Assembly (NCBI RefSeq): GCF_900142845.1
Contig: NZ_FSRU01000003.1
Span: 310,001 to 374,000 of the forward strand
Direction of reading: 5' to 3'
Length of the DNA stretch: 64,000 bases
DNA from: Paraburkholderia phenazinium
GTDB lineage: Bacteria; Pseudomonadota; Gammaproteobacteria; Burkholderiales; Burkholderiaceae
Below are positions 22,298 through 61,048 of this stretch, in pieces. The position numbers were made by a program, and so were the translations under genes. Within the stretch, counting starts at the first letter, position 1. Each line of letters begins with the position of its first letter. The notes beneath the pieces were generated by a model. The model saw only the letters and a list, made by a program, of their open reading frames with translations, had not been told where the DNA came from and did no database searches.

Positions 22298-23446
22298 ATG
22301 CGGATCTATGAAAAGTACTTCGCGAGTCAGGTCTACCTTACGTTTCTCTTCGTCCTGTTTGCGTTTTCGGGTCTGTTCTTCTTTTTCGACCTGATCAACG
22401 AACTGAACTCGGTGGGTCACGGCAACTACAAGTTCCAGTATGCGGTGCTGCGGGTGGCGCTGCAGACGCCGTCGCGCTTCTACGAAATCATTCCGGTGGC
22501 CGCGCTGATCAGCTCGATCTACGTGTTTGCGCAGATGGCGGCGAACTCGGAGTACACGATTTTCCGGGTATCGGGTCTCGCGACGAATCAGGCGCTGCGT
22601 TCGCTGCTGAAGATCGGCATTCCGTTGGTGTTCCTCACTTACGTGATCGGCGAAGTGGTCGGGCCTTATACGGATCAGTTGTCCGAACGGGTGCGGCTGG
22701 AAGCGCTAGGTTCGGCGGTGTCGACCAACTTCGAGTCGGGCGTGTGGGTGAAGGACACGTTGACGGCGCGTGCGGACGGCGAGCAGGTGACGCGTTTTGT
22801 GAACGTGGGCAAGCTGCAACCGGACGCGTCGATCACCAATGTGCGCATCTACGAATTCGATTCGAAGTTCCGCCTGTCGAACGTACGGATTGCGGAGAGC
22901 GGCAAGTATCAGCCGCCGGGCCACTGGTTGCTGAAGGACGTGACGGATACGCAATTGCTCGACGTGCCGCCGCTGGCGGGCACGCCGAAGGATGCGCTCA
23001 ATCCGGTCTACCGGGCGAGCCAGACGACCGTGCCGGAGTACTCGTTGCGTTCGGAGCTGACGCCGCAGATTCTGTCGGTGCTGCTGGTGTCGCCGGACAA
23101 TATGTCGATGTTCAACCTGTTCCGCTACATCCAGCATTTGCAGCAGAACCATCAGGACACGCAGCGGTATGAAATTGCGTTGTGGCGCAAGCTGCTGTAT
23201 CCGTTTGCGGTGCTGGTGATGCTGGTGCTGTCGTTGCCGTTTGCGTATCTGCATACGCGCGCGGGCGTGGTGGGGGTGAAGGTGTTTGGCGGGATCATGT
23301 TGGGGATGAGCTTCCAGCTCTTTAATACCTTGTTCTCGCACATGGGGATGTTGAATACCTGGCCTGCGCCTTTGACTGCGGCTACGCCTGGGTTAGTGTA
23401 TCTGGTGCTTGGGTTGGTTGGGTTGAAGTGGGTGGATCGGCATTAG
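22298..23446 (+). CDS. lptG: LPS export permease LptG
   Basis: A 382-residue partner of LptF with the same six-helix plus periplasmic jellyroll layout. The N-terminus MRIYEKYFASQVYLTFLFVLFAF is typical LptG; YEIIPVAALISSIYVFAQMA lies near residue 63, and the last helices follow about 300. Base composition shifts towards G and T along the gene: in rows starting 22681 and 23041 G+T is 36 of 60, and at 23281 it is 39 of 60. This is part of the skew described around repeat element A. Confidence 0.95.
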   Translation: MRIYEKYFASQVYLTFLFVLFAFSGLFFFFDLINELNSVGHGNYKFQYAVLRVALQTPSRFYEIIPVAALISSIYVFAQMAANSEYTIFRVSGLATNQALRSLLKIGIPLVFLTYVIGEVVGPYTDQLSERVRLEALGSAVSTNFESGVWVKDTLTARADGEQVTRFVNVGKLQPDASITNVRIYEFDSKFRLSNVRIAESGKYQPPGHWLLKDVTDTQLLDVPPLAGTPKDALNPVYRASQTTVPEYSLRSELTPQILSVLLVSPDNMSMFNLFRYIQHLQQNHQDTQRYEIALWRKLLYPFAVLVMLVLSLPFAYLHTRAGVVGVKVFGGIMLGMSFQLFNTLFSHMGMLNTWPAPLTAATPGLVYLVLGLVGLKWVDRH

Positions 23447-23456
23447 GGGTTGTGCC

Positions 23457-23834
23457 ATGGCGTTGCACGGGATCGTGCTGTTTGGACATGGGGCTCGGGA
23501 CGCTCGGTGGAGTGAGCCTTTTTTTCGGCTTGCTGAGAAGGTGCGGGCGTCTCATGGCTCCGCCGGGCCTGTTTCGCTGGCGTTTCTCGAGTTGATGGAG
23601 CCGGATTTGCCTACGGCCGTTGCCGAGCAAGTTGATCAAGGGTGTGATGCTGTTACCGTTGTGCCTGTTTTTTTTGGGCAAGGTGGGCATGTCAGGCGGG
23701 ATTTACCTGCGGTGCTTGATGTTTGTCGCTGTGCGCATCCTGGGGTGGATATTCATTGTGCTATCGCTGTTGGGGAGGATGAGTCTGTGATTGATGCTGT
23801 TGCTCTGTATTGCCTTCGGCAAGTGCAGGGTTAG
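23457..23834 (+). CDS. cbiX: Short CbiX-type sirohydrochlorin chelatase
   Basis: A 125-residue protein of the CbiXS/SirB half-size class. It starts GIVLFGHGARDARWSEPF, with the catalytic-type histidine in FGHGARD, and has VVPVFFGQGGHVRRDLP near residue 68-84 with the second metal-binding histidine. Such enzymes insert cobalt or iron into sirohydrochlorin. Cobalt (cobalamin) and iron (siroheme for CysI) are both plausible here, with cobA 3.2 kb away and convergent. The coding strand is unusually G/T-rich (rows at 23641 and 23701: 45 and 42 of 60 bases), unlike lptF. The ATG is 10 nt after the lptG stop. Confidence 0.85.
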   Translation: MALHGIVLFGHGARDARWSEPFFRLAEKVRASHGSAGPVSLAFLELMEPDLPTAVAEQVDQGCDAVTVVPVFFGQGGHVRRDLPAVLDVCRCAHPGVDIHCAIAVGEDESVIDAVALYCLRQVQG

Positions 23835-23867
23835 CTTAGCTTAGCGATTCTTTGCCCTTCTCTTGCT

Positions 23868-23969
23868 GATTTTGCCTGCGGCGCCTTGGTTTTGGCGTTG
23901 CTCCTGCGGTGTTGGCCTCTCCTTGTTTTCTTATCGGTCTATTAGCTTCGCCCCTGTGCGGGGCAGCAC
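23868..23969. repeat. Repeat element A, outer left arm
   Basis: Starts with TTTGCCTGCGGCG soon after the cbiX stop and runs through a conserved GGTCTATTAG and the small hairpin GCCCC-TGTGC-GGGGC. The same order occurs at 55925-56029, and in reverse complement at 26975-27079, 57836-57940 and 60018-60080. It is interrupted by IS copy 1 after the CAC at 23967-23969. Confidence 0.85.
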
Positions 23970-24030
23970 TGTAGTGGTCCAATGACTCTGGACACCTCTA
24001 AAGGGGATAATTCTCCAACCGAGGTGAGAA

Positions 24031-24333
24031 ATGAGCAGACGGAACATAACTGACGAATTCAAGGCAGAAGCGGTGCAGCTGGTGGTTGCGCAGGGCTACT
24101 CGTTCGCGAAGGCCAGCGAAGCGCTAGGTGTTGGCGATACGGCGTTGCGGCGGTGGGTGGCGCAGTGGCGCGCCGAGCAGGTCCAGCCGCCGCGCACGCA
24201 GGTGCAGGTCAAAGCTGACCAGCGGCGTATCCGGGAGCTTGAGGCGCGGGTGGTCGAGCTTGAACGTGAGCGCGACATACTAAAAAAGTCCACGGCCTTC
24301 TTCGTCAAGGAACTGGATCGCTCCTCGAAGTGA
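24031..24333 (+). CDS. IS3-family transposase OrfA (copy 1)
   Basis: A 100-residue protein with an N-terminal helix-turn-helix (EFKAEAVQLVVAQGYSFAKA, then DTALRRWVAQW) that binds the IS ends. A leucine-zipper helix follows (about residues 60-85, RIRELEARVVELERERDIL). The A AAA AAG heptamer at 24282-24288, in frame CTA-AAA-AAG, is the usual site for -1 frameshifting to make the OrfAB transposase. GAGGTGAG precedes the ATG. The stop overlaps the orfB GTG. Confidence 0.95.
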   Translation: MSRRNITDEFKAEAVQLVVAQGYSFAKASEALGVGDTALRRWVAQWRAEQVQPPRTQVQVKADQRRIRELEARVVELERERDILKKSTAFFVKELDRSSK

Positions 24334-25166
24334 TCCGTTCGCTGAAGAAGGCCTGGCCGGTGAGTCTGATGTGCAGGTTGCTGAAGGTGCCGCGAAGCAG
24401 CTACTACGCGTTCGCGGGACGGGTTTGCAAGCCGGCAGCTTCACCCGCGCTACTCAGAACTGTGCGCCAGATCCACAGCGAGAGCCGCAGCAGTTACGGC
24501 AGTCGCAGGATGGCGCGGGCGCTGCAGCAGCAAGGTCACGCGATCGGACGCTACCGGGCCCGTTCGCTGATGCGCGAGGCGCAACTGGCGGTGGCGCGAC
24601 GGCGAACGCACCGCTATCGCAAGGCCGAAGGTGAAGCACTGGTGGCGCCCAACCTGCTGGAGCGCAAGTTCGAGCCGGGTGCGATCAACCGGGTATGGGC
24701 CGGTGACATTACGTATGTGAGAACGCGGCAGGGCTGGTCCTATCTGGCGATCGTGATGGATCTGCATTCGCGTCGCATCGTGGGCTGGGCGTTTGCCTTG
24801 CAGGCGGATACCGAGCTGGTGATCCAGGCGCTACAGCAGGCCCGCAGCAGCCGGCGCCCAGCCCCCGGACTGATGTTCCACTCCGACCAGGGCTGCCAGT
24901 ACACCAGCGAACGCTTCGTGAGTGATCTGAAGGCAAACGGGATGGTGCAGAGCATGAGCCGAAAGGGAAACTGCTGGGACAACGCGGTGGTCGAGCGCTT
25001 CTTCAGAAGCCTGAAGAGTGAATGGATCGGAGAACAGGAGTACTGCAGTCACGAACAGGCCCAGCGCGATATCGCGGGTTACGTGGCTGACTTTTACAAC
25101 TACCGGCGCATCCATTCGGCGGCCAATGATTCGCCACCGGCGCGTTATGAGGCTTCTATTTACTGA
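24330..25166 (+). CDS. IS3-family transposase OrfB, DDE catalytic part (copy 1)
   Basis: A 278-residue catalytic domain of the rve (retroviral integrase) fold. After the N-terminal HTH_21 segment (SRSSYGSRRMARALQQQG) come the catalytic DDE residues: D in VWAGDITYVRT (about 125), D in MFHSDQGCQYTS (about 186) and E in WDNAVVERFFRSLKSEW (about 222). It is made as the OrfAB fusion by -1 frameshift; the annotated GTG overlaps the orfA stop as GTGA. It cuts and joins the IS ends. Intact, so potentially active. Confidence 0.95.
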   Translation: MIRSLKKAWPVSLMCRLLKVPRSSYYAFAGRVCKPAASPALLRTVRQIHSESRSSYGSRRMARALQQQGHAIGRYRARSLMREAQLAVARRRTHRYRKAEGEALVAPNLLERKFEPGAINRVWAGDITYVRTRQGWSYLAIVMDLHSRRIVGWAFALQADTELVIQALQQARSSRRPAPGLMFHSDQGCQYTSERFVSDLKANGMVQSMSRKGNCWDNAVVERFFRSLKSEWIGEQEYCSHEQAQRDIAGYVADFYNYRRIHSAANDSPPARYEASIY

Positions 25167-25206
25167 AAACCCCTTTGTGGGTGTCCAAAGGGGCTTGACC
25201 ACTACA

Positions 25207-25737
25207 CACTTACTTTCTTTGCCGCCGCAAAGAAAGTAAGCAAAGAAAGCGGGCTGCAACCGCTAGCCCGTAGTGAGCCATCCCGGTTTGCTCCGGGAAA
25301 CGGCCCAACACGAGACCCTCTCTCGCATTTTCCACCGTCAGTGACACAGCGCTCATCCATCCCGCCTTCGCACTCCGTGCGCAGCGGATGGGTCCGCCCA
25401 TGGTGGCACGCAAGTGTGAACTGGCAACGCTCACGTTGAAATGTTTGGATGCCTAAATAGCACACGGCACGGCACGGCACGGCACGGCACGGCACGGCAC
25501 GGCACGGCACGGCACGGCACGTGCAGGATGAGTGTATCGAAGAAGTGTTATGCCCGACGGCGGGGCGCGCAGCGCGACGCTGGAGCGGACGAGTGCTGTG
25601 TCACTAACGTGGATGGTGCGAGAGCGGGTCTCGTCTTGGGCCGTTCCCCGCAGCAGACCGGGATGGCTCACTACCGGCTAGCGGTGGCAGCCCGCTTTCT
25701 TTGCTTACTTTCTTTGCGGCGGCAAAGAAAGTAAGTG
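25207..25737. repeat. Repeat element A, core between two IS copies
   Basis: These 531 bases hold the two inner arms of element A, which are inverted relative to each other. Hairpins lie at 25209-25240 and 25704-25735 (stem CTTACTTTCTTTGC, 14 bp perfect). The left inner arm continues CAAAGAAAGCGGGCTGCAA to about 25440, and the right inner arm mirrors it from about 25545. In the middle is the GGCAC pentanucleotide array. Short open frames crossing it share a degenerate peptide but are closed by stops in other copies, so no gene is called. Confidence 0.88.
25466..25520. repeat. Pentanucleotide tandem array (GGCAC)11
   Basis: Eleven perfect copies of GGCAC without interruption, at the centre of element A. 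Perfect copies suggest recent slippage; the unit is not a multiple of three and it is non-coding. Confidence 0.98.
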
Positions 25738-25798
25738 TGTAGTGGTCCAATGACTCTGGACACCTCTAAAGGGGATAATTCTCCAACCGAGGTGAGAA

Positions 25799-26101
25799 AT
25801 GAGCAGACGGAACATAACTGACGAATTCAAGGCAGAAGCGGTGCAGCTGGTGGTTGCGCAGGGCTACTCGTTCGCGAAGGCCAGCGAAGCGCTAGGTGTT
25901 GGCGATACGGCGTTGCGGCGGTGGGTGGCGCAGTGGCGCGCCGAGCAGGTCCAGCCGCCGCGCACGCAGGTGCAGGTCAAAGCTGACCAGCGGCGTATCC
26001 GGGAGCTTGAGGCGCGGGTGGTCGAGCTTGAACGTGAGCGCGACATACTAAAAAAGTCCACGGCCTTCTTCGTCAAGGAACTGGATCGCTCCTCGAAGTG
26101 A
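25799..26101 (+). CDS. IS3-family transposase OrfA (copy 2)
   Basis: 100 residues, identical to copy 1 OrfA: helix-turn-helix plus leucine zipper, with the A6G frameshift site at 26050-26056. Confidence 0.95.
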   Translation: MSRRNITDEFKAEAVQLVVAQGYSFAKASEALGVGDTALRRWVAQWRAEQVQPPRTQVQVKADQRRIRELEARVVELERERDILKKSTAFFVKELDRSSK

Positions 26102-26934
26102 TCCGTTCGCTGAAGAAGGCCTGGCCGGTGAGTCTGATGTGCAGGTTGCTGAAGGTGCCGCGAAGCAGCTACTACGCGTTCGCGGGACGGGTTTGCAAGC
26201 CGGCAGCTTCACCCGCGCTACTCAGAACTGTGCGCCAGATCCACAGCGAGAGCCGCAGCAGTTACGGCAGTCGCAGGATGGCGCGGGCGCTGCAGCAGCA
26301 AGGTCACGCGATCGGACGCTACCGGGCCCGTTCGCTGATGCGCGAGGCGCAACTGGCGGTGGCGCGACGGCGAACGCACCGCTATCGCAAGGCCGAAGGT
26401 GAAGCACTGGTGGCGCCCAACCTGCTGGAGCGCAAGTTCGAGCCGGGTGCGATCAACCGGGTATGGGCCGGTGACATTACGTATGTGAGAACGCGGCAGG
26501 GCTGGTCCTATCTGGCGATCGTGATGGATCTGCATTCGCGTCGCATCGTGGGCTGGGCGTTTGCCTTGCAGGCGGATACCGAGCTGGTGATCCAGGCGCT
26601 ACAGCAGGCCCGCAGCAGCCGGCGCCCAGCCCCCGGACTGATGTTCCACTCCGACCAGGGCTGCCAGTACACCAGCGAACGCTTCGTGAGTGATCTGAAG
26701 GCAAACGGGATGGTGCAGAGCATGAGCCGAAAGGGAAACTGCTGGGACAACGCGGTGGTCGAGCGCTTCTTCAGAAGCCTGAAGAGTGAATGGATCGGAG
26801 AACAGGAGTACTGCAGTCACGAACAGGCCCAGCGCGATATCGCGGGTTACGTGGCTGACTTTTACAACTACCGGCGCATCCATTCGGCGGCCAATGATTC
26901 GCCACCGGCGCGTTATGAGGCTTCTATTTACTGA
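26098..26934 (+). CDS. IS3-family transposase OrfB (copy 2)
   Basis: 278 residues, identical to copy 1 OrfB, with an intact DDE triad (GDITYV, HSDQG, NAVVERFF). GTG start overlapping the orfA stop. Confidence 0.95.
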   Translation: MIRSLKKAWPVSLMCRLLKVPRSSYYAFAGRVCKPAASPALLRTVRQIHSESRSSYGSRRMARALQQQGHAIGRYRARSLMREAQLAVARRRTHRYRKAEGEALVAPNLLERKFEPGAINRVWAGDITYVRTRQGWSYLAIVMDLHSRRIVGWAFALQADTELVIQALQQARSSRRPAPGLMFHSDQGCQYTSERFVSDLKANGMVQSMSRKGNCWDNAVVERFFRSLKSEWIGEQEYCSHEQAQRDIAGYVADFYNYRRIHSAANDSPPARYEASIY

Positions 26935-26974
26935 AAACCCCTTTGTGGGTGTCCAAAGGGGCTTGACCACTACA

Positions 26975-27079
26975 GTGCCGCCCCGCACAGGGGCATCGCT
27001 AATAGACCACTAAGAAAGCAAGGAAAGGCCAACAAGATAGGAACAACAACAAAAACCAAGCCACCGCAGGCAAAAACCC
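26975..27079. repeat. Repeat element A, outer right arm
   Basis: Reverse complement of the outer left arm: GCCCC/GGGGC hairpin, CTAATAGACCACTAAGAAAG, AAGGAAAGGCCAA, and the terminal CCGCAGGCAAAAA that abuts the cobA stop. It matches 57836-57940 closely. Confidence 0.85.
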
Positions 27080-27081
27080 TA

Positions 27082-27837
27082 TCAAGCCGCACTAAGCAAC
27101 GCGTCCAAGGAAGCCCCCACCTGCTCCCCATTCCGCACAGCAAAAGCCTCCCCAATCATAAGAAGACTAGGCTGGGAAGCATCGAGCCACTGCTGAGCCT
27201 CGCCGCAGGCAAGCGCCGAAAGCGTGAGTGTGAGCATCCGCTCACGAGCCGTGCTGCAGGCTTCGACGATGGCCACAGGCGTATGCCCATCACGCCCAGC
27301 ATCAATCAACTGCTGAGCAATCTCGGGCCCACTATCCCGTCCCATATAGAACACGAGCGAATCCGCATTCACCTGCTCACGAATCGCCTGAGTATCAGCC
27401 GCCCGGCTATGGGTCGCCAACGCAACGCTACGAGACACGCCGCGCAGCGTCAAAGACCGCTTCAAAGAAGCCGCACTAGCCAGCGCAGCCGTAATCCCAG
27501 GCACAACCTCATACTCAATCCCAGCCGCCTCTAGCGCCCGCATCTCTTCATCAGCACGCCCAAACAACATAGGATCGCCGCCCTTGAGGCGAACAACAAC
27601 TGCATGCTCCCGCGCCGCATCCACAATCTGCTTGTTGATGAACTGCTGCGCGGTGGAAAGCTGTCCACACCGCTTGCCAACCGCAATCTTGCGCGCATGC
27701 GCCGCATACTCCAGCATCTCCGGCTCGACAAGCGCGTCGTGCAACACCACATCCGCCGCGCCAAGCAACCGAGCGCCCCGAACCGTGATGAGATCCGCAG
27801 CCCCTGGCCCTGCGCCGATCAGATACACCTTACCCAT
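27082..27837 (-). CDS. cobA: Uroporphyrinogen-III C-methyltransferase
   Basis: A 251-residue SUMT. It methylates uroporphyrinogen III at C2 and C7 to precorrin-2, the branch point to siroheme (for CysI) and cobalamin. Family motifs: VYLIGAGPGAADLITVRGARLL at the N-terminus, VVRLKGGDPMLFGR near residue 85, EVVPGITAALA near 112 and VFYMGRD near 165. The start is placed at ATG 27837 (MGKVYLIGAG); ATG 27852 (MGLRQMGKV) is an alternative. It follows cysN by about 70 nt on the same strand, as the last gene of the cys operon. Its coding strand is G/T-rich at the 3' end, i.e. A/C-rich on the plus strand. Confidence 0.93.
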   Translation of the reverse strand: MGKVYLIGAGPGAADLITVRGARLLGAADVVLHDALVEPEMLEYAAHARKIAVGKRCGQLSTAQQFINKQIVDAAREHAVVVRLKGGDPMLFGRADEEMRALEAAGIEYEVVPGITAALASAASLKRSLTLRGVSRSVALATHSRAADTQAIREQVNADSLVFYMGRDSGPEIAQQLIDAGRDGHTPVAIVEACSTARERMLTLTLSALACGEAQQWLDASQPSLLMIGEAFAVRNGEQVGASLDALLSAA

Positions 27838-27908
27838 TTGCCTCAACCCCATTCGTCCGGTTCGTGCAAACCGCAGCCGCGTACACCCATCAAGCCGTGG
27901 CGGATCCG

Positions 27909-29222
27909 TCAGGCCGAAAACGCCCGGATCATCCCAGCCGCCACCGTATGGTGCGTCGCCTCGTCGATCAGCACGAATGCCCCCGTGCCCTGATGCGAGT
28001 CGTACACGTCGCACACCAGCGGCTTTTGCAGCGTCAACGCCACCCGACCAATGTCGTTCATCGTCAGATCGAGACGGTCCGTCGCATGCGACAGCGTATG
28101 CACATCCAGCACCTGCCTGATCGCGCCAATGCGCGCAAACACGGTATTCGTGGTCTGCTTCAGCAAATACTTGCGTTGCGTCGACAACGGCGTGTCGTCA
28201 AACCAGCACAGGTCGGCTTCGAGCTTCTTCGCCGGTTCCGGCGCCGCTGCACGCAGCACGAACGTATCGCCGCGCGACACGTCCACGTCTTCCGTCAGGC
28301 GAATCGTCACCGTCTGGCCCGCAAAAGCGCGGTCCACCTGCGCCGTGCCGCCCGGCACCGGAGCAATGATCTCCGCCACCGTCGCTTCGCGGTTCGCCGG
28401 CAGCACCACGATCGTGTCGCCCACCTTCACTTCGCCCGCTTCGATCCGGCCCATGTAGCCGCGGAAATCGTCCGCCTGGCTGCCGTCCTGGCGCGCCACC
28501 CACTGCACCGGGAAACGCAGCGCCTGGCCCGTCGGAATCTCCACCGGCAACGCTTCGAGCAGGTCCAGCAGCGGCTCGCCCGCGTACCACGGCATGCGTT
28601 CGCTCGCCGTCACGATGTTGTCGCCCTTCAGCGCCGACACCGGCACGAAGCGCACATCGCTCAGACCCAGTTGACGCGCAAGCTCGACATACGCATCGCG
28701 GATTTCGTTGAAGCGCGTTTCGCTGTAGTCGACCAGGTCCATCTTGTTGATCGCCACAATCGCATGCTGCAAACCGAGCAGCTTGACGATCGCGCTATGG
28801 CGCTTGGTCTGCGGCAGCAGTTGCGCCACGCCGTTTTCAAACGTGACGCGCGTGGCGTCGACCAGAATGATCGCGGCATGCGCCGTCGACGCGCCCGTCA
28901 CCATGTTGCGCGTGTACTGCTCGTGACCCGGCGTGTCCGCAATGATGAACTTGCGCTTCGCCGTGGCGAAGTAACGGTAGGCAACGTCGATGGTGATGCC
29001 CTGCTCGCGTTCGGCTTCGAGGCCGTCCGTCAGCAGCGACAGATCGATTTCGTCGCCCACGGTGCGCTTGTTCTTGGCGCGCGACAGTGCCGACAGTTGA
29101 TCGCTCAAAACAGCCTTGCTGTCGTACAGCAGACGTCCGATCAGCGTGCTCTTGCCGTCGTCGACGCTACCCGCCGTAATGAAGCGCAGCACGCCGAGGT
29201 CTTCCGGTTGATGAATGCTCAT
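27909..29222 (-). CDS. cysN: Sulfate adenylyltransferase subunit 1 (GTPase)
   Basis: A 437-residue elongation-factor-like GTPase that couples GTP hydrolysis to APS formation by CysD. G1 ITAGSVDDGKSTLIGRLLYD is near residue 16, G2 EREQGITIDVAYRYF near 72, G3 DTPGHEQYTRNM near 95 and G4 NKMD near 157, followed by beta-barrel domains. No APS kinase (CysC) is fused at the C-terminus. It starts 21 nt after the cysD stop. Confidence 0.96.
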   Translation of the reverse strand: MSIHQPEDLGVLRFITAGSVDDGKSTLIGRLLYDSKAVLSDQLSALSRAKNKRTVGDEIDLSLLTDGLEAEREQGITIDVAYRYFATAKRKFIIADTPGHEQYTRNMVTGASTAHAAIILVDATRVTFENGVAQLLPQTKRHSAIVKLLGLQHAIVAINKMDLVDYSETRFNEIRDAYVELARQLGLSDVRFVPVSALKGDNIVTASERMPWYAGEPLLDLLEALPVEIPTGQALRFPVQWVARQDGSQADDFRGYMGRIEAGEVKVGDTIVVLPANREATVAEIIAPVPGGTAQVDRAFAGQTVTIRLTEDVDVSRGDTFVLRAAAPEPAKKLEADLCWFDDTPLSTQRKYLLKQTTNTVFARIGAIRQVLDVHTLSHATDRLDLTMNDIGRVALTLQKPLVCDVYDSHQGTGAFVLIDEATHHTVAAGMIRAFSA

Positions 29223-29243
29223 GATTTTACTACCCTCGTGTGC

Positions 29244-31574: not shown

Positions 31575-31597
31575 CTGTTCAGTATCCTTTGTCTCGG

Positions 31598-49032: not shown

Positions 49033-49078
49033 CATTGCAGGGCGCACGCTCACCCCTCAGCCACGCCGACCGCGCTTC

Positions 49079-50416
<1,338 letters not shown>

Positions 50417-52236: not shown

Positions 52237-53862
52237 ATGGCGTTTTCCATTTTGAGGCTCACACGGCGCAGTATCGGTGCGCTGGGTATCGCGCTCATCA
52301 CCGTCGCACCGCTGGCGGCGTTTGCGCTGACCCCAGCCGACGTCGCGCCGCTCGCCGCCGACGACTTCGACGCGAAATCCGCGGCGATCGACAAACTGAT
52401 CGCCAATCACGACGCGCCGTCGCAAGCGCTGCTCAAGGCATTGTCCGAGGACAATGCGCTCACGACCGACTCCGGCGAAGTGCTGATCCAGGACGGCGAC
52501 ACGACCAAAGACGTCATCACCGGCAAGACGGTCAGCGCACCCGATGCGCAACCAGTCACGCTGAACAATCTGCTGCGCTCGAAGGTGTCGGGCGCGCTGT
52601 CGGGTTCGCAACTCGACTCTCCGGATCTGGAAACGCGCCGCGCGGCGATTAACGCGCTGCTGCAGAATCCCGATCCTTCGATGAAACCGTTGATCGACGC
52701 GCAGCGCGCGAAGGAAACCGATCCGGGTCTCAAGAAGAAACTCGACACGCTATGGGCCATGACGGCGCTGCACAACAGCGACCCGGCAACGCGCCTTGAA
52801 GCCGTGCAGCTCGTGGCCGCGCGCCACGACCTCGACATGAACGAACTGCTGCGGCCGCTCGTCGCGAAGAAGCCCGACGGTACGTTCGTGGAAAGCGACG
52901 ACCGGGTGCGTGCCGCTGCGCAGGCCGGCATCGACGAGCTCGACGCGATCCAGCGCCGCAGCCAGATTGCGGGCACGCTGTTCGCGGGCCTGTCGCTCGG
53001 CAGCGTGCTGCTGCTGGCCGCGCTGGGACTCGCCATCACGTATGGGCTGATCGGCGTCATCAATATGGCGCATGGCGAGTTCCTGATGATCGGTGCGTAC
53101 GCAACGTATGTGGTTCAGAACCTGTTCCAGCGCTTCGCGCCTGGCGCTTTCGACTGGTATCCGCTGCTGGCGGTGCCGGCCTCGTTCGTGGCGGCGGCGC
53201 TGGTGGGCATGGTGCTGGAGCGGCTCGTGCTCAAACATCTGTATGGCCGTCCGCTCGAGACCTTGCTCACCACCTTCGGCATCAGCCTGATCCTGATCCA
53301 GGCGACCCGGATGATCTTCGGCGCGCAGAACGTGCAGGTCAGCAATCCGGCGTGGATGAGCGGCGGCGTCACCGTGATGCCCAGCCTGATCCTGCCGTAT
53401 AACCGGCTGGCGATTCTGGCGTTCTCGCTGATCGTGGTCGGCATTGCCTGGGCGGTGCTGACGAAAACGCGCCTCGGCCTGTTCGTGCGCGCCGTGACGC
53501 AAAACCGCCGCATGGCTGCGTGCGTCGGTGTGCGGACGGCGCGAGTCGATTCGTACGCCTTTGCATTTGGTGCGGGCATTGCGGGCCTGGGCGGCTGTGC
53601 GCTTTCGCAGATCGGTAACGTCGGTCCGGATCTGGGTCAGAGCTACATCATCGATTCTTTCATGGCGGTGGTGCTGGGCGGCGTCGGTCAACTGGCCGGC
53701 ACGGTGATCGGCGGCTTCGGACTCGGGCTGATCAGCAAGGCGATCGAACCGTTCTGGGGCGCTGTGCTCGCGAAGATCGCTGTGCTTGTCCTGATCGTGC
53801 TGTTCATCCAGAAGCGGCCGCAGGGGATGTTCGCCCTGAAGGGCCGCAGCGCGGAGGCATGA
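52237..53862 (+). CDS. urtB: Urea ABC transporter permease UrtB
   Basis: A 541-residue permease of the LivH type. UrtB has an extra N-terminal exported region of about 230 residues before the membrane domain: signal peptide to about 30 (VAPLAAFA), then a helical, HEAT-like segment. The eight or so helices begin near residue 245 (ASGTLFAGLSLGSVLLLAALGLA-type, GLIGVINMAHGEFLMIGAYATY). GGVGQLAGTVIGGFGLGLI near 480 is the ATPase-contact region. It starts 159 nt after urtA. Confidence 0.95.
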   Translation: MAFSILRLTRRSIGALGIALITVAPLAAFALTPADVAPLAADDFDAKSAAIDKLIANHDAPSQALLKALSEDNALTTDSGEVLIQDGDTTKDVITGKTVSAPDAQPVTLNNLLRSKVSGALSGSQLDSPDLETRRAAINALLQNPDPSMKPLIDAQRAKETDPGLKKKLDTLWAMTALHNSDPATRLEAVQLVAARHDLDMNELLRPLVAKKPDGTFVESDDRVRAAAQAGIDELDAIQRRSQIAGTLFAGLSLGSVLLLAALGLAITYGLIGVINMAHGEFLMIGAYATYVVQNLFQRFAPGAFDWYPLLAVPASFVAAALVGMVLERLVLKHLYGRPLETLLTTFGISLILIQATRMIFGAQNVQVSNPAWMSGGVTVMPSLILPYNRLAILAFSLIVVGIAWAVLTKTRLGLFVRAVTQNRRMAACVGVRTARVDSYAFAFGAGIAGLGGCALSQIGNVGPDLGQSYIIDSFMAVVLGGVGQLAGTVIGGFGLGLISKAIEPFWGAVLAKIAVLVLIVLFIQKRPQGMFALKGRSAEA

Positions 53863-53863
53863 G

Positions 53864-55054
53864 ATGACATCGGCAACCTCCCCCGCTTCCGTCACACCGT
53901 CCGGCACGGGCGCGCCACCAGGCACCGAACGTGCCGCGCAGTCGGGCTTCGCGCTGGGCTTGCCGCCGCGTCCCGCGCTGTTGTCGCGACCGGCATGGAT
54001 CGCGCTGATTGCGCTGATCGTCGCGATCGGCCTGGGCGTGCCGTTCTCGGCGCTGGTACTGCCGGAAACGAGCGCGTTCCACCTGTCCGCGTACATGATG
54101 ACGCTCACCGGCAAGTTCATGTGCTACGCGATCGGCGCACTCGCACTGGATCTCGTATGGGGTTATTGCGGCATCCTAAGCTTGGGACACGCACTGTTCT
54201 TTGCGCTGGGCGGCTACGCGATCGGCATGTACCTGATGCGTGCGATCGGTCACGACGGCGTCTATCAGAGCGATCTGCCCGACTTCATGGTGTTTCTGAA
54301 CTGGCACGCGTTGCCGTGGTACTGGGAAGGCACGCAGCATCTCTGGTACGCGTTGCTGCTGGTGATCCTGGTGCCGGCCGTGATTGCCTGGGTGTTCGGC
54401 TTCTTCACGTTTCGCTCGCGAGTAAAGGGTGTGTACCTGTCGATCATCACGCAGGCCATGACGTTCGCCGCGATGTTGCTGTTCTACCGCAACGAAACCG
54501 GCTTCGGCGGCAACAATGGCTTTACGGACTTCAAGCGGATCGGCGGCTTTCCGATCACGCATCCGGGCACGCGCACGGCGCTCTTTCTGATCACGTTTGC
54601 GGTGCTGGTGCTGGCGTTTCTGGGTGCGCGGGCCATCGTGACCTCAAAGCTTGGACGCGTGGTCACAGCGGTGCGCGATGGCGAAACGCGGCTGATGTTT
54701 CTCGGCTACAGCCCGCTTGGCTACAAGCTGTTTATCTGGACGGTGTCGGCGATTCTGTGCGGGATTGCTGGGGCGCTGTATGTGCCGCAAGTTGGCATTA
54801 TCAATCCGGGCGAGATGTCGCCGGGCAACTCGATTGAAATGGCGATCTGGGTGGCGGTGGGCGGACGCGGCACGCTGATTGGACCGATTATCGGAGCGTT
54901 TGCTGTGAATGGCGCGAAGAGCTTTTTCACGGCGAACTTCCCTGAATACTGGCTGTTCTTTCTCGGCTTGATCTTCGTGCTGGTGCCGTTGCTGCTACCG
55001 AACGGCATCATGGGGTTGCTCGAACTCGCGATGCGCAAGAGGGATCGCTCATGA
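53864..55054 (+). CDS. urtC: Urea ABC transporter permease UrtC
   Basis: A 396-residue LivM-type permease, partner of UrtB. A soluble N-terminal tail of about 40 residues is followed by eight to ten helices from LSRPAWIALIALIVAIGLGV. GYCGILSLGHALFFALGGYA near residue 105 and the cytoplasmic loop VVTAVRDGETRLMFLGYSPLGYKLF near 265 are typical UrtC blocks. The ATG is 1 nt after the urtB stop; urtD overlaps the 3' end (ATGA). Confidence 0.95.
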   Translation: MTSATSPASVTPSGTGAPPGTERAAQSGFALGLPPRPALLSRPAWIALIALIVAIGLGVPFSALVLPETSAFHLSAYMMTLTGKFMCYAIGALALDLVWGYCGILSLGHALFFALGGYAIGMYLMRAIGHDGVYQSDLPDFMVFLNWHALPWYWEGTQHLWYALLLVILVPAVIAWVFGFFTFRSRVKGVYLSIITQAMTFAAMLLFYRNETGFGGNNGFTDFKRIGGFPITHPGTRTALFLITFAVLVLAFLGARAIVTSKLGRVVTAVRDGETRLMFLGYSPLGYKLFIWTVSAILCGIAGALYVPQVGIINPGEMSPGNSIEMAIWVAVGGRGTLIGPIIGAFAVNGAKSFFTANFPEYWLFFLGLIFVLVPLLLPNGIMGLLELAMRKRDRS

Positions 55055-55914
55055 ACGAGAACCCGATGGTGCCTGACCTGGCTTTACCGGAAGACCCTGC
55101 AGAACACTCGCTGAGCGGCGTCGCGGATTTTGGGCGAGTGGTGACACCGGGCGAGATTGACGTGTCGCACGGGACGATTTTGTATCTTGAGGATGTGACG
55201 GTTAGCTTCGACGGGTTCCGGGCGTTGAATGCGTTGACGTTGTCGATCGATGTGGGCGAATTGCGCTGCATCATCGGGCCTAACGGCGCGGGCAAGACGA
55301 CGATGATGGATGTGATTACGGGGAAGACTGAGCCGGATTCCGGCAAGGTGTTTCTTGGACAGACGATCGATCTCACGCGGATGAACGAGCCGTCGATTGC
55401 GCGAGCGGGGATTGGTCGCAAGTTTCAGAAGCCGACGGTGTTTGAGCAGCATCCGGTTTGGGAGAATCTCGAACTGGCGATGAAGGCTGACAAGGGATGG
55501 TGGGCTTCTTTGCGGGCGCGGCTGGATCGGGAGGCGCAGGCTCGGATTGAGGAGACGCTTTCGCTGATTCGTCTTGAGAGTGAGGCGAGGCGGTTGGCTG
55601 GGGAGTTGTCGCATGGGCAGAAGCAGCGGCTCGAGATTGGCATGTTGTTGATGCAGCAGCCGGCGCTTCTTCTGCTTGACGAGCCTGCGGCTGGCATGAC
55701 CGATGATGAAACTATGCAGTTGGCCGAGCTTCTTAATCATCTTCGTGGCACTTGTTCGATGATGGTTGTGGAGCATGATATGGAGTTTGTTGCTGCTCTC
55801 TCTGGCGAGGCCGGGAAAGTCACCGTTATGGCTGAAGGACGTGTTCTCGCTCATGGCACGCTTGATGAAGTTAAGCAGGATGAGACTGTTATTGAGTCTT
55901 ATCTGGGGCGGTGA
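55051..55914 (+). CDS. urtD: Urea ABC transporter ATPase UrtD
   Basis: A 287-residue LivG-type ATPase. Walker A IGPNGAGKTTMMDVITGK is near residue 72, the signature LSHGQKQRLEIGMLL near 185, Walker B LLLLDEPAAGMTDDE near 208 and the H-loop VVEHDMEFV near 245. The 3' half has unusual composition for this window: the rows starting 55561 and 55741 are 42 of 60 G+T, with many codons ending in T or G. Repeat element B begins right after its stop, so it is the last gene of the urtABCD block; urtE is 2.1 kb away. Confidence 0.95.
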   Translation: MNENPMVPDLALPEDPAEHSLSGVADFGRVVTPGEIDVSHGTILYLEDVTVSFDGFRALNALTLSIDVGELRCIIGPNGAGKTTMMDVITGKTEPDSGKVFLGQTIDLTRMNEPSIARAGIGRKFQKPTVFEQHPVWENLELAMKADKGWWASLRARLDREAQARIEETLSLIRLESEARRLAGELSHGQKQRLEIGMLLMQQPALLLLDEPAAGMTDDETMQLAELLNHLRGTCSMMVVEHDMEFVAALSGEAGKVTVMAEGRVLAHGTLDEVKQDETVIESYLGR

Positions 55915-55918
55915 GGGT

Positions 55919-56598
55919 TTTTTTTTGCCTGCGGCGGCTTTGTGGTTGGTGGTTGGTGGTTTGCGTTTGGGGTTGGCCTTTCCTTGCTTTCTTAGTGGTC
56001 TATTAGCGTTGCCCCTGTGCGGGGCAGCACTTACTTTCTTTGCCGCCGCAAAGAAAGTAAGCAAAGAAAGCGGGCTGCAACCGCTAGCTCGTAGTGAGCC
56101 ATCTAGGTCCGCTACCGGAAACGGCCCAAAACGAGACAGTCTCTCGCACCACACTCGCCAGTGACAAAGGACTCATTCATCCCGCGTGCGCACCTCGTGC
56201 GCCCCGGTACGGTTCACCATACGGTTGCCCGCATTTGTCCGTTGCTCACCACAACGCCCCAAATGCTCACTGTAAGTGCCGTAGTTACAGAACAAGCTAG
56301 CTCGTAGTCACACCCCGGGACAGTTCGGCACACTTAGATTTCGCGGTTCGCGGTTGGCGGTTGATAGTGGTTAAAGGCGGTGCTAGCGGATAGCGTTTTG
56401 GTGGGGAGTTATGCCTGACGGCGGGGCGCGAAGCGCGACGCTGGAGCGGATGAGTGCCTTGTCACTAGCGTGGGTGGTGCGAGGGCGGGTCTTGTGTTGG
56501 GCCGTTCCCCGCAGCAAACCGGGATGGCTCACTACGAGCTAGCGGTGTGAGCCCGCTTTCTTTGCTTACTTTCTTTGCGGCGGCAAAGAAAGTAAGTG
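55919..56598. repeat. Repeat element B, left arm and core
   Basis: The left arm is uninterrupted here: TTTTTGCCTGCGGCGGCTTT after the urtD stop, TAGTGGTCTATTAGCG, GCCCC-TGTGC-GGGGC, then the 14-bp hairpin 56030-56061 and the inner arm (GCGGGCTGCAACCGCTAGC to about 56230). It shows the empty IS target (CAC at 56028-56030). The core has no tandem array. The right arm, inverted, is entered at about 56400 (GACGGCGGGGCGCG) and has its hairpin at 56565-56596, next to IS copy 3. No gene is supported in these 680 bases. Confidence 0.88.
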
Positions 56599-56659
56599 TG
56601 TAGTGGTCCAATGACTCTGGACACCTCTAAAGGGGATAATTCTCCAACCGAGGTGAGAA

Positions 56660-56962
56660 ATGAGCAGACGGAACATAACTGACGAATTCAAGGCAGAAGC
56701 GGTGCAGCTGGTGGTTGCGCAGGGCTACTCGTTCGCGAAGGCCAGCGAAGCGCTAGGTGTTGGCGATACGGCGTTGCGGCGGTGGGTGGCGCAGTGGCGC
56801 GCCGAGCAGGTCCAGCCGCCGCGCACGCAGGTGCAGGTCAAAGCTGACCAGCGGCGTATCCGGGAGCTTGAGGCGCGGGTGGTCGAGCTTGAACGTGAGC
56901 GCGACATACTAAAAAAGTCCACGGCCTTCTTCGTCAAGGAACTGGATCGCTCCTCGAAGTGA
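56660..56962 (+). CDS. IS3-family transposase OrfA (copy 3)
   Basis: 100 residues, identical to the other two copies; frameshift heptamer at 56911-56917. Confidence 0.95.
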   Translation: MSRRNITDEFKAEAVQLVVAQGYSFAKASEALGVGDTALRRWVAQWRAEQVQPPRTQVQVKADQRRIRELEARVVELERERDILKKSTAFFVKELDRSSK

Positions 56963-57795
56963 TCCGTTCGCTGAAGAAGGCCTGGCCGGTGAGTCTGATG
57001 TGCAGGTTGCTGAAGGTGCCGCGAAGCAGCTACTACGCGTTCGCGGGACGGGTTTGCAAGCCGGCAGCTTCACCCGCGCTACTCAGAACTGTGCGCCAGA
57101 TCCACAGCGAGAGCCGCAGCAGTTACGGCAGTCGCAGGATGGCGCGGGCGCTGCAGCAGCAAGGTCACGCGATCGGACGCTACCGGGCCCGTTCGCTGAT
57201 GCGCGAGGCGCAACTGGCGGTGGCGCGACGGCGAACGCACCGCTATCGCAAGGCCGAAGGTGAAGCACTGGTGGCGCCCAACCTGCTGGAGCGCAAGTTC
57301 GAGCCGGGTGCGATCAACCGGGTATGGGCCGGTGACATTACGTATGTGAGAACGCGGCAGGGCTGGTCCTATCTGGCGATCGTGATGGATCTGCATTCGC
57401 GTCGCATCGTGGGCTGGGCGTTTGCCTTGCAGGCGGATACCGAGCTGGTGATCCAGGCGCTACAGCAGGCCCGCAGCAGCCGGCGCCCAGCCCCCGGACT
57501 GATGTTCCACTCCGACCAGGGCTGCCAGTACACCAGCGAACGCTTCGTGAGTGATCTGAAGGCAAACGGGATGGTGCAGAGCATGAGCCGAAAGGGAAAC
57601 TGCTGGGACAACGCGGTGGTCGAGCGCTTCTTCAGAAGCCTGAAGAGTGAATGGATCGGAGAACAGGAGTACTGCAGTCACGAACAGGCCCAGCGCGATA
57701 TCGCGGGTTACGTGGCTGACTTTTACAACTACCGGCGCATCCATTCGGCGGCCAATGATTCGCCACCGGCGCGTTATGAGGCTTCTATTTACTGA
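56959..57795 (+). CDS. IS3-family transposase OrfB (copy 3)
   Basis: 278 residues, identical to the other two copies, DDE residues intact; GTG start overlapping the orfA stop. Confidence 0.95.
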   Translation: MIRSLKKAWPVSLMCRLLKVPRSSYYAFAGRVCKPAASPALLRTVRQIHSESRSSYGSRRMARALQQQGHAIGRYRARSLMREAQLAVARRRTHRYRKAEGEALVAPNLLERKFEPGAINRVWAGDITYVRTRQGWSYLAIVMDLHSRRIVGWAFALQADTELVIQALQQARSSRRPAPGLMFHSDQGCQYTSERFVSDLKANGMVQSMSRKGNCWDNAVVERFFRSLKSEWIGEQEYCSHEQAQRDIAGYVADFYNYRRIHSAANDSPPARYEASIY

Positions 57796-57835
57796 AAACC
57801 CCTTTGTGGGTGTCCAAAGGGGCTTGACCACTACA

Positions 57836-57940
57836 GTGCTGCCCCGCACAGGGGCGAAGCTAATAGACCACTAACAAAGCAAGGAAAGGCCAACAAGGTA
57901 GGAACAACGACAAAACCAAGCCACCGCAGGCAAAACCCCC
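57836..57940. repeat. Repeat element B, outer right arm
   Basis: GCCCC/GGGGC hairpin, CTAATAGACCACTAACAAAG, AAGGAAAGGCCAACAAGG and the terminal CCACCGCAGGCAAAAC, the same order as 26975-27079. The row at 57901 is only 12 of 60 G+T. It ends about 40 nt before the urtE ATG. Confidence 0.85.
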
Positions 57941-57981
57941 ATCTGCAAGCAGCAAAAAAAGAACCCAGAGGACAAACAGCA

Positions 57982-58674
57982 ATGCTAGAAGTGGAACACC
58001 TAAACCAGTACTACGGCGGCAGCCACATCCTCCGAGACGTGAAACTAACAGTACCAGACGGTAAGCTAACGGTACTATTAGGCCGCAACGGCGTAGGCAA
58101 GACAACGTTACTGCGTTGCCTGATGGGCGTCGTCCCAACAAAAAGCGGCGCAATCTCCTGGCGCGGCACGCCGCTAACGAAACTGCCAACGTATGCCCGC
58201 GTAGCAAACGGCCTGGCCTACGTCCCCCAGGGCCGCGACATCTTCCCGCGCCTGACGGTAGAAGAAAACCTGCTGGTAGGCGCCGCCAGCAAAAAAGCCC
58301 CATCCAAAATCCCCGACCGCATCTACGAACTCTTCCCAGTCCTAAAAGACATGCGCAGCCGCCGCGGCGGCGACCTGTCCGGTGGACAGCAGCAACAACT
58401 CGCCATCGGACGCGCCCTCATGAGCGAGCCGCAACTGCTCATCCTCGATGAACCCACCGAAGGCATTCAGCCCTCCATCATCCAGGACATCGGCCGCACC
58501 CTGCGTCAACTCGTCGAAGAAATGGGGCTCACCGTCCTCCTCGTCGAGCAGTACTACGACTTCGCCAAAGCCATCGCCGATCGCTACTGGGTCATGAGCC
58601 GCGGTGAAATCGTCGCCGGCGGCGAAGGCGCCAACATGGACGCCGACGGCGTACGCGCCCTGATCGCGGTGTGA
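57982..58674 (+). CDS. urtE: Urea ABC transporter ATPase UrtE
   Basis: A 230-residue LivF-type ATPase. Walker A LLGRNGVGKTTLLRCLMG is near residue 36, LAYVPQGRDIFPRLTVEEN (Q-loop) near 78, the signature LSGGQQQQLAIGRALM near 135, Walker B LLILDEPTEGIQPS near 155 and the H-loop VEQYYDFA near 190. It should complete UrtABCDE but is cut off from urtD by about 2.1 kb of repeat and IS. The first 500 bases are A/C-rich on the coding strand, the reverse of urtD. Transcription must come through the IS or from a new promoter. Confidence 0.94.
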   Translation: MLEVEHLNQYYGGSHILRDVKLTVPDGKLTVLLGRNGVGKTTLLRCLMGVVPTKSGAISWRGTPLTKLPTYARVANGLAYVPQGRDIFPRLTVEENLLVGAASKKAPSKIPDRIYELFPVLKDMRSRRGGDLSGGQQQQLAIGRALMSEPQLLILDEPTEGIQPSIIQDIGRTLRQLVEEMGLTVLLVEQYYDFAKAIADRYWVMSRGEIVAGGEGANMDADGVRALIAV

Positions 58675-59700: not shown

Positions 59701-59817
59701 AAACGGATGGAAGTCCGCCCGCCGGACCGGCTAAGCCCGGGGCCACGATCTCGATGCCCCCACACCCACCGTTTGCGCATGGCCCATCTTCCGCGGAGCT
59801 TCCGGCGTGGACGAGGA

Positions 59818-60110
59818 GCGGCATAGTGAACCGTACCGTGGCGCACGAAGTGCGCACACGGGATGAATGAGCGCTTTGTCACTGACGGGAGAAATGCGAG
59901 AGCGGATCTCGTCTCGGACCACTCTGGGCGGCCAAACAGAGATGGACACCTACGAGCTAGCGGTGTGAGCCCGCTTTCTTTTGCCTACTTTTCTTTGCGG
60001 CGGCAAAGAAAAGTAGGTGCCGCCCCGCACAGGGGCAACGCTAATAGACCACGAAGAAAACAAGGAAAGGCCAACCAGGCACCAAACAGGAGCAAACAAG
60101 GCCCAGAAGA
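59818..60110. repeat. Repeat half-element C
   Basis: A single arm in right-arm orientation, starting at about 59818 (GTGAACCGTACCGTGGCGCAC, the inverted match of the inner left arm of B). It runs through the hairpin 59984-60017 and the outer arm GCCGCCCCGCACAGGGGC, CTAATAGACCACGAAGAAAACAAGGAAAGGCC. The stem here is CCTACTTTTCTTTGC / GCAAAGAAAAGTAGG (15 bp), differing from the other copies by paired changes. The IS target GTG (60017-60019) is empty. No left arm is present. Covers most of the 544-base gap between ureD and the binding-protein gene; nothing else is supported there. Confidence 0.85.
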
Positions 60111-60244
60111 GGTGCAAGCCCACCGAAAACCCCGAGCATGCGCAGCCCCACCCCTCTGGCATACACCTTGCTCGCAAAAGCACCACGAACACTGCCGCAC
60201 CAGACGGCAACCACCCAGCTCCGCCCACCACCGCTTAGACAGAC

Positions 60245-61048
60245 ATGACCCAACCATCGCACCGCCGTGCGCGCCGCACCTGGCTCGCCACCCTCCTGCT
60301 CGCACCGGCCCTGGCATTAACGACACCAGCGGCCCACGCCGACGCCCTGGACACCATCACCAAAGCCGGCGTACTAAAAGTCGCTGTCCCCGAGGACTAT
60401 CCACCGTTTGGCTCAGTCGGCCCCGACATGCAACCGCAAGGCTACGACATCGACACGGCCGCGCTGCTCGCCAAGTCGATGAACGTCAAACTGCAACTGG
60501 TCCCGGTCAACAGCGCGAACCGCATCCCCTATCTACAGACCAATAAAGTCGACCTGGTGATCTCATCACTCGGCAAGACCCCCGACCGCGAGAAAGTAAT
60601 CGACTTCTCGAACGCCTACGCCCCCTACTATCAGGGCGTGTTCGGCCCCGCCGACATCAAGGTGAGCGGCCCGGCCGATCTCACCGGCAAGACGGTCGGC
60701 GCGACGCGCGGCGCACTCGAAGAAATCGCCCTCACGCAGATGGCGCCGAACGCCACCATCAAGCGTTTCGAAGACAACAACGCCACCATCGCCGCGTTCC
60801 TCTCCGGTCAGGTGCAACTGATCGCCGCCGGCAATATCGTCGCCGCGGCCATCAATGCGAAGAATCCGCCACGTCGCCCAGAACCCAAGTTCGTCATAAA
60901 GGATTCACCATGCTTCGTCGGCATGAATAAAAATGAAAGCCGGCTGCTGGAGAAGGTCAACGCCGCCATCGCCCAAGCCAAGGCCGACGGCACGCTCAAC
61001 ACCATGTCGAAGAAGTGGTTCGGCGCGCCGCTGCCCGCAACGCTGTAA
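60245..61048 (+). CDS. Amino-acid-type ABC substrate-binding protein in the urease cluster
   Basis: A 267-residue class II (SBP_bac_3) periplasmic protein. Signal peptide: RRARRTWLATLLLAPALALT, cleavage after AAHA near residue 31. The mature N-terminus is LDTITKAGVLKVAVPEDYPPFG, with the family motif PQGYDIDTAALLAKSMNVKL near 55 and KTVGATRGALEEIALTQM near 145. It binds an amino acid or related small ligand. No permease or ATPase is next to it. It breaks the normal ureD-ureA order, starting about 130 nt after repeat C, and its first 150 bases are A/C-rich. Ligand unknown. Confidence 0.85.
   Translation: MTQPSHRRARRTWLATLLLAPALALTTPAAHADALDTITKAGVLKVAVPEDYPPFGSVGPDMQPQGYDIDTAALLAKSMNVKLQLVPVNSANRIPYLQTNKVDLVISSLGKTPDREKVIDFSNAYAPYYQGVFGPADIKVSGPADLTGKTVGATRGALEEIALTQMAPNATIKRFEDNNATIAAFLSGQVQLIAAGNIVAAAINAKNPPRRPEPKFVIKDSPCFVGMNKNESRLLEKVNAAIAQAKADGTLNTMSKKWFGAPLPATL

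What the first reader, a model, noticed from the sequence alone, without database searches (positions are those of the whole stretch)
22900..60500. Strand-asymmetric G+T / A+C skew flanking every repeat arm, through coding genes
Counting 60-base rows on the plus strand: left of element A, G+T is 36 (row 23041), 39 (23281), 45 (23641), 42 (23701) and 42 (23761); right of A it is 15 (27061), 21 (27121), 19 (27481) and 19 (27541). Left of B it is 42 (55561) and 42 (55741); right of B 12 (57901), 23 (58021) and 20 (58441). Right of C it is 18 (60121), 21 (60241) and 19 (60301). Left of C, where no arm exists, it is 30 (59581), and a control in lptF (21541) is 31. The skew does not follow gene strand: cobA (-) and urtE (+) are both A/C-rich on the plus strand. 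It fades over roughly 0.5-1 kb. This pattern resembles long-term deamination (C to T, A to G) of one exposed strand pointing into the element, or selection on outward transcripts (C-rich, G-poor RNA suits Rho loading). I know of no described element doing this.
Basis: partly seen in the sequence, partly recalled or inferred. Interest (0 to 1): 0.85.

Follow-up and report, generated by a model that had tools for sequence, protein, structure and literature searches.

The report
Repeat arms that mutate their neighbours
A repeated hairpin-rich DNA element in soil bacteria of the genus Paraburkholderia leaves a one-sided, strand-specific trail of changed bases reaching 1-3 kb into the genes next to it, as if the DNA beside each arm were repeatedly laid bare and miscopied.

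Summary
All 19 row counts are exact, and the pattern holds across the genome: 49 of 49 arms examined are G/T-rich on the strand whose 3' end points into the element (mean keto skew 0.217; 352 control windows -0.009, sd 0.058), fading with a half-distance of about 0.8 kb. It recurs in other Paraburkholderia. urtD/urtE orthologs with the element are strongly skewed, those without are not. Gene strand and fork direction matter little. Fourfold-site divergence is 1.3-fold higher near arms; on the inward strand G>T is raised 7.5x and T>G 5.2x, C>T only weakly. Deamination is thus only partly supported, Rho loading not. The skew belongs to each arm separately: 27 one-armed copies average 0.183 on the arm side and 0.017 on the other, and five orthologous one-armed pairs still show the signature. 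I favour a strand-specific nick or one-ended break at each arm, outward removal of the 5'-ended strand, and damage plus error-prone filling of the exposed inward strand. No nick, gap or enzyme was observed. My limited searches found no description of this element.

The parts
23911..23964 (+). Element A, left arm: GTTGGCC end to GCCCC-TGTGC-GGGGC hairpin
   Evidence: Sequence
23970..25206 (+). Insertion sequence (1237 bp; IS3-like by its domains and two-ORF layout, family name recalled), copy 1, inserted in element A's left arm
   Evidence: rve and HTH_21 domains; boundaries and CAC duplication
25209..25735 (.). Element A interior with left (25209-25240) and right (25704-25735) 32-nt palindromes; inverted-repeat arms of 166 nt, 89% complementary, 273 nt apart
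25738..26974 (+). Identical IS copy 2, in element A's right arm (GTG duplication)
26980..27033 (+). Element A, right arm (hairpin to GGCCAAC end)
22001..23910 (+). G/T-rich left flank of A (end of the LptF_LptG genes, cbiX); inward strand = +
27034..28500 (-). Right flank of A, A/C-rich on + (cobA); inward strand = -
55972..56061 (+). Element B, left arm and left palindrome
56565..56596 (+). Element B, right palindrome
56599..57835 (+). Identical IS copy 3, in element B's right arm
57841..57894 (+). Element B, right arm
53000..55971 (+). G/T-rich left flank of B (permease genes and urtD)
57895..58671 (-). Right flank of B, A/C-rich on + (urtE, read away from the arm)
59812..60075 (+). Element C: right half only (palindrome variant 59989-60012, hairpin 60022-60036)
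60076..61000 (-). Right flank of C, A/C-rich on + (SBP_bac_3 gene, read away); ureD on the armless left side is not G/T-rich

Best explanation
SHOWN: the arms of this Paraburkholderia repeat carry, on the outer side only, an ongoing strand-asymmetric substitution bias that decays over 1-3 kb through genes of either orientation. The affected strand is the one running 5'->3' into the arm; on it G>T and T>G are raised 5-7-fold at fourfold sites, C>T weakly, and overall fourfold divergence about 1.3-fold. INFERRED: each arm (a 32-nt palindrome next to a GCCCC/GGGGC hairpin) is a site of recurrent strand-specific nicking or one-ended breakage on the outward-running strand. The 5' end so made is resected outward (RecJ/RecQ- or RecBCD-like), leaving the inward-running strand single-stranded for one to a few kb. 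Oxidised G (G>T) and deaminated C (C>T) on that strand, and low-fidelity or 8-oxo-dGTP-accepting gap filling by DinB or Imu-type polymerases (T>G), fix the bias. In two-armed copies the two trails face each other and give the mirrored skew. What makes the nick (a transposase acting on element ends, a structure-specific nuclease such as the divergent SbcD/Rad50-like pair near recB, or another enzyme) is unknown.
For: 49 of 49 arms have the right sign. urtD/urtE orthologs with the element are skewed and those without are not (urtD 6 vs 11 genomes, p=0.001; urtE 7 vs 11, p=0.0006). Within-genome control: G022 and G031 have no arm motif at urtE and are not A/C-skewed there, but are strongly skewed at cobA, where an arm or its hairpin is present. 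Three genomes that appear to have lost the urt element keep skew on both sides (L239, L246; weaker in L248), as a mutational memory would. Fourfold divergence rises near arms (809/2800 vs 1880/8620); G>T 58/1358 vs 15/2636 (p=1e-15); T>G 47/478 vs 6/316 (p=4e-6); strand asymmetry near arms G>T vs C>A p=0.0015, C>T vs G>A p=0.003. 27 one-armed copies: arm side 0.183, armless side 0.017. Five one-armed ortholog pairs show 61 G/T against 8 A/C differences at 150-700 bp, and 23 against 30 at 1.7-3.5 kb. No clear dependence on fork direction in 20 of 26 elements (0.207 arriving, 0.240 departing, p=0.10). G000 encodes DNA polymerase IV, ImuA with a second IMS-domain match beside it, RecB and an SbcD-like/Rad50-like gene pair.
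Against: No nick, gap, ssDNA or mutation rate was measured. T>G is not a classical ssDNA-damage change, and its asymmetry against A>C cannot be tested (1 of 40; p=0.16). C>G was prominent in the urtE comparison (103 of 225 site-by-genome cells against 11 of 281 in controls) but only 1.4x (p=0.2) in the polarised set, so older and recent spectra differ. Polarisation is by parsimony on 20 triplets with sites treated as independent. One-armed copies could be remnants whose other flank was replaced; conserved synteny was checked only for element C. Four of 27 one-armed copies exceed 0.1 in an armless window (L031, L269, L271, L284), and one has no skew on the arm side (L281, -0.024). Several cobA and ureD orthologs are skewed with no detected arm (L213, L223, L225, L227; L241, L242, L244, L246, L248); I read these as scars, contig ends or variants, unverified. 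No enzyme is linked to the element.
Confidence: 0.42

Rival explanations
1. Two-ended double-strand breaks at the whole inverted repeat (hairpin or cruciform cleavage), resected to 3' tails on both sides and repaired mutagenically.
For: The polarity is that of 3' tails on both sides. The one complete copy folded is far more stable than shuffled DNA (-256 vs -112 kcal/mol, z -25, 20 shuffles). In yeast, inverted repeats induce breaks and mutagenesis up to 8 kb away (PMC3681665, abstract and passages), and in E. [quoted passage not shown] A divergent SbcD/Rad50-like pair lies near recB.
Against: One-armed copies give one-sided skew of equal strength. Canonical SbcD is over its cut-off in 9 of 68 genomes and not in G000.
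Confidence: 0.2
2. Selection for a G/T-rich inward strand, such as recombination-promoting (Chi- or RecA-preferred) sequence, or for A/C-rich outward RNA that loads Rho.
For: GCTGGTGG occurs 15 times on the inward strand and 0 times reversed within 1.5 kb of arms. Outward strands are A/C-rich and G-poor.
Against: The observed/expected ratio for inward Chi is about 4 both near and far, so composition explains it. Fourfold divergence rises instead of falling, and G>C and T>C losses are not suppressed. Genes read away from the arm are nearly as affected.
Confidence: 0.1
3. Arms terminate inward transcription (hairpin plus T-rich tract), and R-loops behind stalled polymerases expose the inward, non-template strand.
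For: One-sided and fork-independent by nature; in 15 of 55 ortholog groups a called gene read toward the arm ends 95-130 bp from the palindrome; read inward, the arm has a GC hairpin followed by a T-rich stretch.
Against: Genes read away from arms, such as urtE and the SBP gene, where inward transcription would be antisense, are nearly as skewed (keto 0.69-0.71 away vs 0.75-0.78 toward at 100-700 bp).
Confidence: 0.1
4. Arms are replication fork barriers or local termini that expose the lagging-strand template.
For: G/T-rich strands have leading-strand polarity for forks running into the arm.
Against: Skew does not clearly depend on replichore, and if anything is larger on the departing side; a unidirectional fork cannot reach both arms from outside.
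Confidence: 0.04

Closest known systems
Fragile inverted-repeat-induced mutagenesis (yeast; PMC3681665, abstract and passages read)
   Same: A hairpin-forming repeat raises mutation in flanking genes over kilobases, explained by ssDNA and error-prone synthesis.
   Different: That is an engineered, eukaryotic, two-sided, break-dependent system. Here it is a natural dispersed bacterial repeat, a single arm suffices, and the effect is recorded as strand-specific base composition.
Mutagenic break repair in E. coli (PMC6443146 and PMC5542668, passages read)
   Same: Mutations are most frequent in the first kb beside the break; 8-oxo-dG, which gives A>C and G>T changes, is required, and Pol IV makes most of the mutations.
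   Different: There it is stress-induced and mapped at engineered breaks. Here no break is shown, the effect is one-sided, and it is read from base composition.
REP/BIME/REPIN repeats (PMC3116915 seen only as a search listing; the rest recalled)
   Same: Multi-copy intergenic palindromes, often in inverted pairs, and a target for a site-specific IS.
   Different: No RAYT linkage found; far longer arms and element; no flanking mutational footprint is known to me for REPs.
MITEs (recalled)
   Same: Short elements with inverted termini dispersed between genes.
   Different: Target duplication and a mobilising transposase were not established.

Membership tests
REPIN/RAYT system | Inverted pairs of short palindromic units in many copies | tested here: met
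   45 palindromes in 26 places in G000, 19 of them inverted pairs
REPIN/RAYT system | Cognate Y1 (RAYT) transposase | tested here: not met
   G000's only Y1_Tnp match (28.6 bits) is of a kind seen at 24-32 bits throughout the genus, also in genomes without the repeat; strong matches are confined to a few genomes and do not track copy number
SbcCD-cleaved long palindrome | Long inverted repeat able to form a hairpin | tested here: met
   One element (L016) folded: z -25; complementary arms in A and B
SbcCD-cleaved long palindrome | Canonical SbcCD in the host | tested here: not met
   TIGR00619 above cut-off in 9 of 68 genomes, not G000; G000 has a divergent SbcD-like/Rad50-like pair
Mutagenic double-strand-break repair | Mutations raised within about 1 kb on both sides of a break | tested here: inconclusive
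   Raised within about 1 kb, but one-sided skew at one-armed copies; breaks not measured
Mutagenic double-strand-break repair | Dependence on DinB, RecA and RecBCD | not testable with these tools
   DinB and RecB genes are present; dependence needs mutants
MITE | Target site duplication and a transposase with matching ends | not tested
   Element ends are blurred by the skewed flanks
Replication terminus/fork barrier | Effect depends on fork direction | tested here: not met
   20 of 26 elements, direction inferred from local GC skew: arriving 0.207 vs departing 0.240, p=0.10

The most novel reading that the evidence does not exclude
A natural, dispersed bacterial repeat whose single arms each act as a built-in one-sided local hypermutator: recurrent strand-specific nicking at the arm exposes the inward strand of neighbouring genes and writes a G>T/T>G/C>T gradient into them that outlives the element.
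Probability: 0.35. Interest if true: 0.93.

Novelty: new variant of a known kind. Interest (0 to 1): 0.83.

Why it matters
If right, intergenic repeats are not neutral passengers: they set the mutation spectrum and rate of adjacent genes over kilobases and bend codon usage with little regard to gene strand. It offers a sequence-only readout of recurrent single-strand exposure in bacterial chromosomes, with dozens to hundreds of natural replicates in repeat-rich genomes, for testing how ssDNA damage and repair polymerases shape evolution. It also warns that local codon or skew anomalies can be footprints of lost repeats.

Tried and rejected
Chance or cherry-picking: rejected (49 of 49 arms against 352 control windows). 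Pre-existing skew at insertion sites: rejected for urtD/urtE by element-free orthologs; the cobA orthologs point the same way, less cleanly. Simple deamination as sole cause: rejected by the spectrum. Replication fork direction: not supported. Chi enrichment as driver: composition explains it. RAYT link: not found. Rfam: no match at the element in three scanned loci; only SECIS_3 and tRNA-Sec elsewhere in L021. Concerted evolution of arms: only weak (outer-arm identity 0.728 within, n=20, vs 0.659 between elements), so not used. SbcD-like gene and repeat number: of 14 genomes lacking a match of 40 bits or more, 1 has 4 or more palindromes, against 35 of 54 with one (p=1.4e-4); with the stricter ortholog set (hand count) 26 of 35 against 10 of 33. 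Phylogeny is not controlled and several repeat-rich genomes lack it, so it is only a lead. The all-sites triplet analysis mixed codon positions and was replaced by fourfold sites; one search recomputed those counts exactly, and dropping two groups that looked like unfiltered IS copies changed nothing. A viral-contig search with UrtE found no relative.

Rows dropped before counts: 7 of 98 palindromes of mixed orientation; flanks containing the window's IS, too short, or duplicated; pairs with divergence above 0.16 or below 0.005; 6 of 26 elements in the fork test (one-armed or of weak background skew); L239, L246 and L248 left out of both groups in the rank tests, although L239 and L246 were counted as with-element. 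Of 120 loci found, 80 were used. At urt, 21 loci (20 relatives and the window) were examined of 62 genomes with a match.
Full report
THE OBSERVATION. The window lies on the third contig of an 8.5-Mb, three-contig genome (G000). With up to two mismatches it occurs in 46 of 70 genomes of the genus and in 1 of 48 others of the order. G000 has 45 copies in 26 places, 19 of them inverted pairs about 0.4-0.5 kb apart. Around these 26 places the mean keto skew is +0.31 left and -0.30 right in the first 200 bp and is near zero at about 3 kb (half-distance about 0.8 kb). Measured 100-1000 bp beyond the outer edge of each arm, 49 of 49 arms carry the predicted sign (mean 0.217, minimum 0.109), against 352 control windows with mean -0.009 and sd 0.058. 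In 80 loci from other species the same pattern appears, shorter in range. Comparable skew does occur at 47501-48000 in this window with no arm seen, so the claim rests on the ensemble.

ORTHOLOGS WITH AND WITHOUT THE ELEMENT. Twenty relatives and the window were compared at urtD/urtE. Six genomes with the element in the gap (718 bp or more) have third-position keto +0.57 to +0.77 in the last third of urtD; with a seventh whose urtD was not found, -0.40 to -0.51 in the first third of urtE. Eleven without it, with gaps of 22-75 bp, have -0.09 to +0.11 and -0.25 to +0.14 (rank tests; species not independent). Three further genomes have short gaps yet skew on both sides (L239, L246; weaker in L248), which I read as lost elements with a fading memory. 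At cobA the same split appears less cleanly, and G022 and G031, not A/C-skewed at urtE, are strongly skewed at cobA. Some cobA orthologs (L213, L223, L225, L227) and ureD orthologs (L241, L242, L244, L246, L248) are skewed without a detected arm; I read them as scars, contig ends or unrecognised variants, not proven.

MUTATION OR SELECTION. In 55 groups of orthologous flanks (50 with called genes), fourfold sites on the strand pointing into the element go from C .42-.44, G .43-.47, T .05-.06 at 2.7-3.5 kb to C .18-.26, G .47-.52, T .22-.26 at 100-400 bp, for genes read toward and away alike. Fourfold divergence in 38 pairs is higher near arms (809/2800 at 100-700 bp against 1880/8620 at 1.4-3.5 kb). 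Polarised on 20 triplets, G>T is raised 7.5-fold and T>G 5.2-fold on the inward strand, C>T 1.6-fold (p=0.09), C>G 1.4-fold (p=0.2); A>G, G>C and T>C are unchanged and G>A falls (0.6, p=0.05). An earlier comparison of urtE with element-free relatives showed much C>G, so older history differs from the recent spectrum, or two-step changes contribute. A rise in rate with a strand-specific spectrum, and no suppression of changes that lose G/T, favours mutation over selection.

ONE ARM IS ENOUGH. Element C in the window has only a right arm. Its right neighbour (SBP gene) is skewed; its left neighbour ureD, about 0.3 kb away, is not. The two genes are ancestral neighbours: in 12 of 14 relatives with the SBP gene found and no arm between them they lie 194-371 bp apart. 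In G064 and G022 the same gap holds only a left arm, followed by unrelated ORFs (in G022 transposase-like by eye): there ureD is skewed (+0.64, +0.56) and the SBP gene is not. Over the fetched loci scanned, 27 one-armed copies average 0.183 on the arm side and 0.017 on the other; 158 arms with a partner average 0.167. Four of the 27 exceed 0.1 in an armless window and one lacks skew on its arm side. Five pairs of orthologous one-armed loci still show the asymmetric differences at 150-700 bp (G/T 61 against A/C 8; C/T 98 against A/G 30) and much less asymmetry far away (23 against 30; 118 against 91). The process is therefore tied to the single arm and is recent.

HOW IT MAY WORK. The affected strand is the one that stays when a 5' end at the arm is removed outward. 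A symmetric break would expose both sides even at one-armed copies, so a strand-specific nick, or a break with one protected end, fits better. Fork direction has no clear effect in 20 elements, and gene direction little, which weakens replication and transcription models. Oxidised guanine gives G>T and A>C (PMC5542668, passages read), which on this strand read as G>T and T>G. DNA polymerase IV, and ImuA with a neighbouring IMS-domain match, are encoded. From recall, human pol kappa, a DinB relative, makes T>G errors. A divergent SbcD-like and Rad50-like gene pair lies a few kb before recB; its link to the repeat is unproven. No step of the mechanism was observed.

WHAT IS KNOWN. Yeast inverted repeats cause breaks and mutations up to 8 kb away (PMC3681665, abstract and passages). 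E. coli break repair concentrates mutations in the first kb (PMC6443146, passages). Keyword searches of the open library (listings, not all hits shown: 15 of 30, 12 of 14, 9 of 10) listed no paper that by title or start of abstract describes this repeat or such a footprint in bacteria. The repeat resembles REP/BIME elements, but no RAYT link was found.

Noticed in passing
23970-25206, 25738-26974, 56599-57835; also L018, L032, L036: A 1237-bp IS3-like element; the six copies found in the G000 stretches I held are 100% identical and all sit at the same point of an arm (between palindrome and hairpin) with a 3-bp CAC/GTG duplication: a site-specific IS that targets this repeat, perhaps because the arm is structurally distinctive in vivo.
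   Followed up: partly
25463-25521: Array of short CACGG-type repeats inside element A's interior.
   Followed up: no
47501-48000 and 49001-49500: Keto skew of -0.30 and -0.23 with no arm seen nearby, beside a tandem pair of related genes (pieces 72-83% identical at 45784-46800 and 47944-48969); gene composition or an old scar.
   Followed up: no
G000 contig C1:747620-751362 (L340:2121-5863): Divergent SbcD-like (372 aa) and Rad50-like (875 aa) gene pair a few kb before recB; the SbcD-like gene has orthologs in 35 of 68 genomes of the genus.
   Followed up: partly
L237 (G004): urtE has an arm upstream, but urtD was not found on the 17-kb stretch: a possible rearrangement at the element.
   Followed up: no
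L021:13597-13655 and 4243-4334: SECIS_3 element and selenocysteine tRNA on the same 18.5-kb stretch as a repeat copy.
   Followed up: no
G042 in the genus survey: One genome holds 279 palindrome copies, the largest number among the 118 genomes searched.
   Followed up: no
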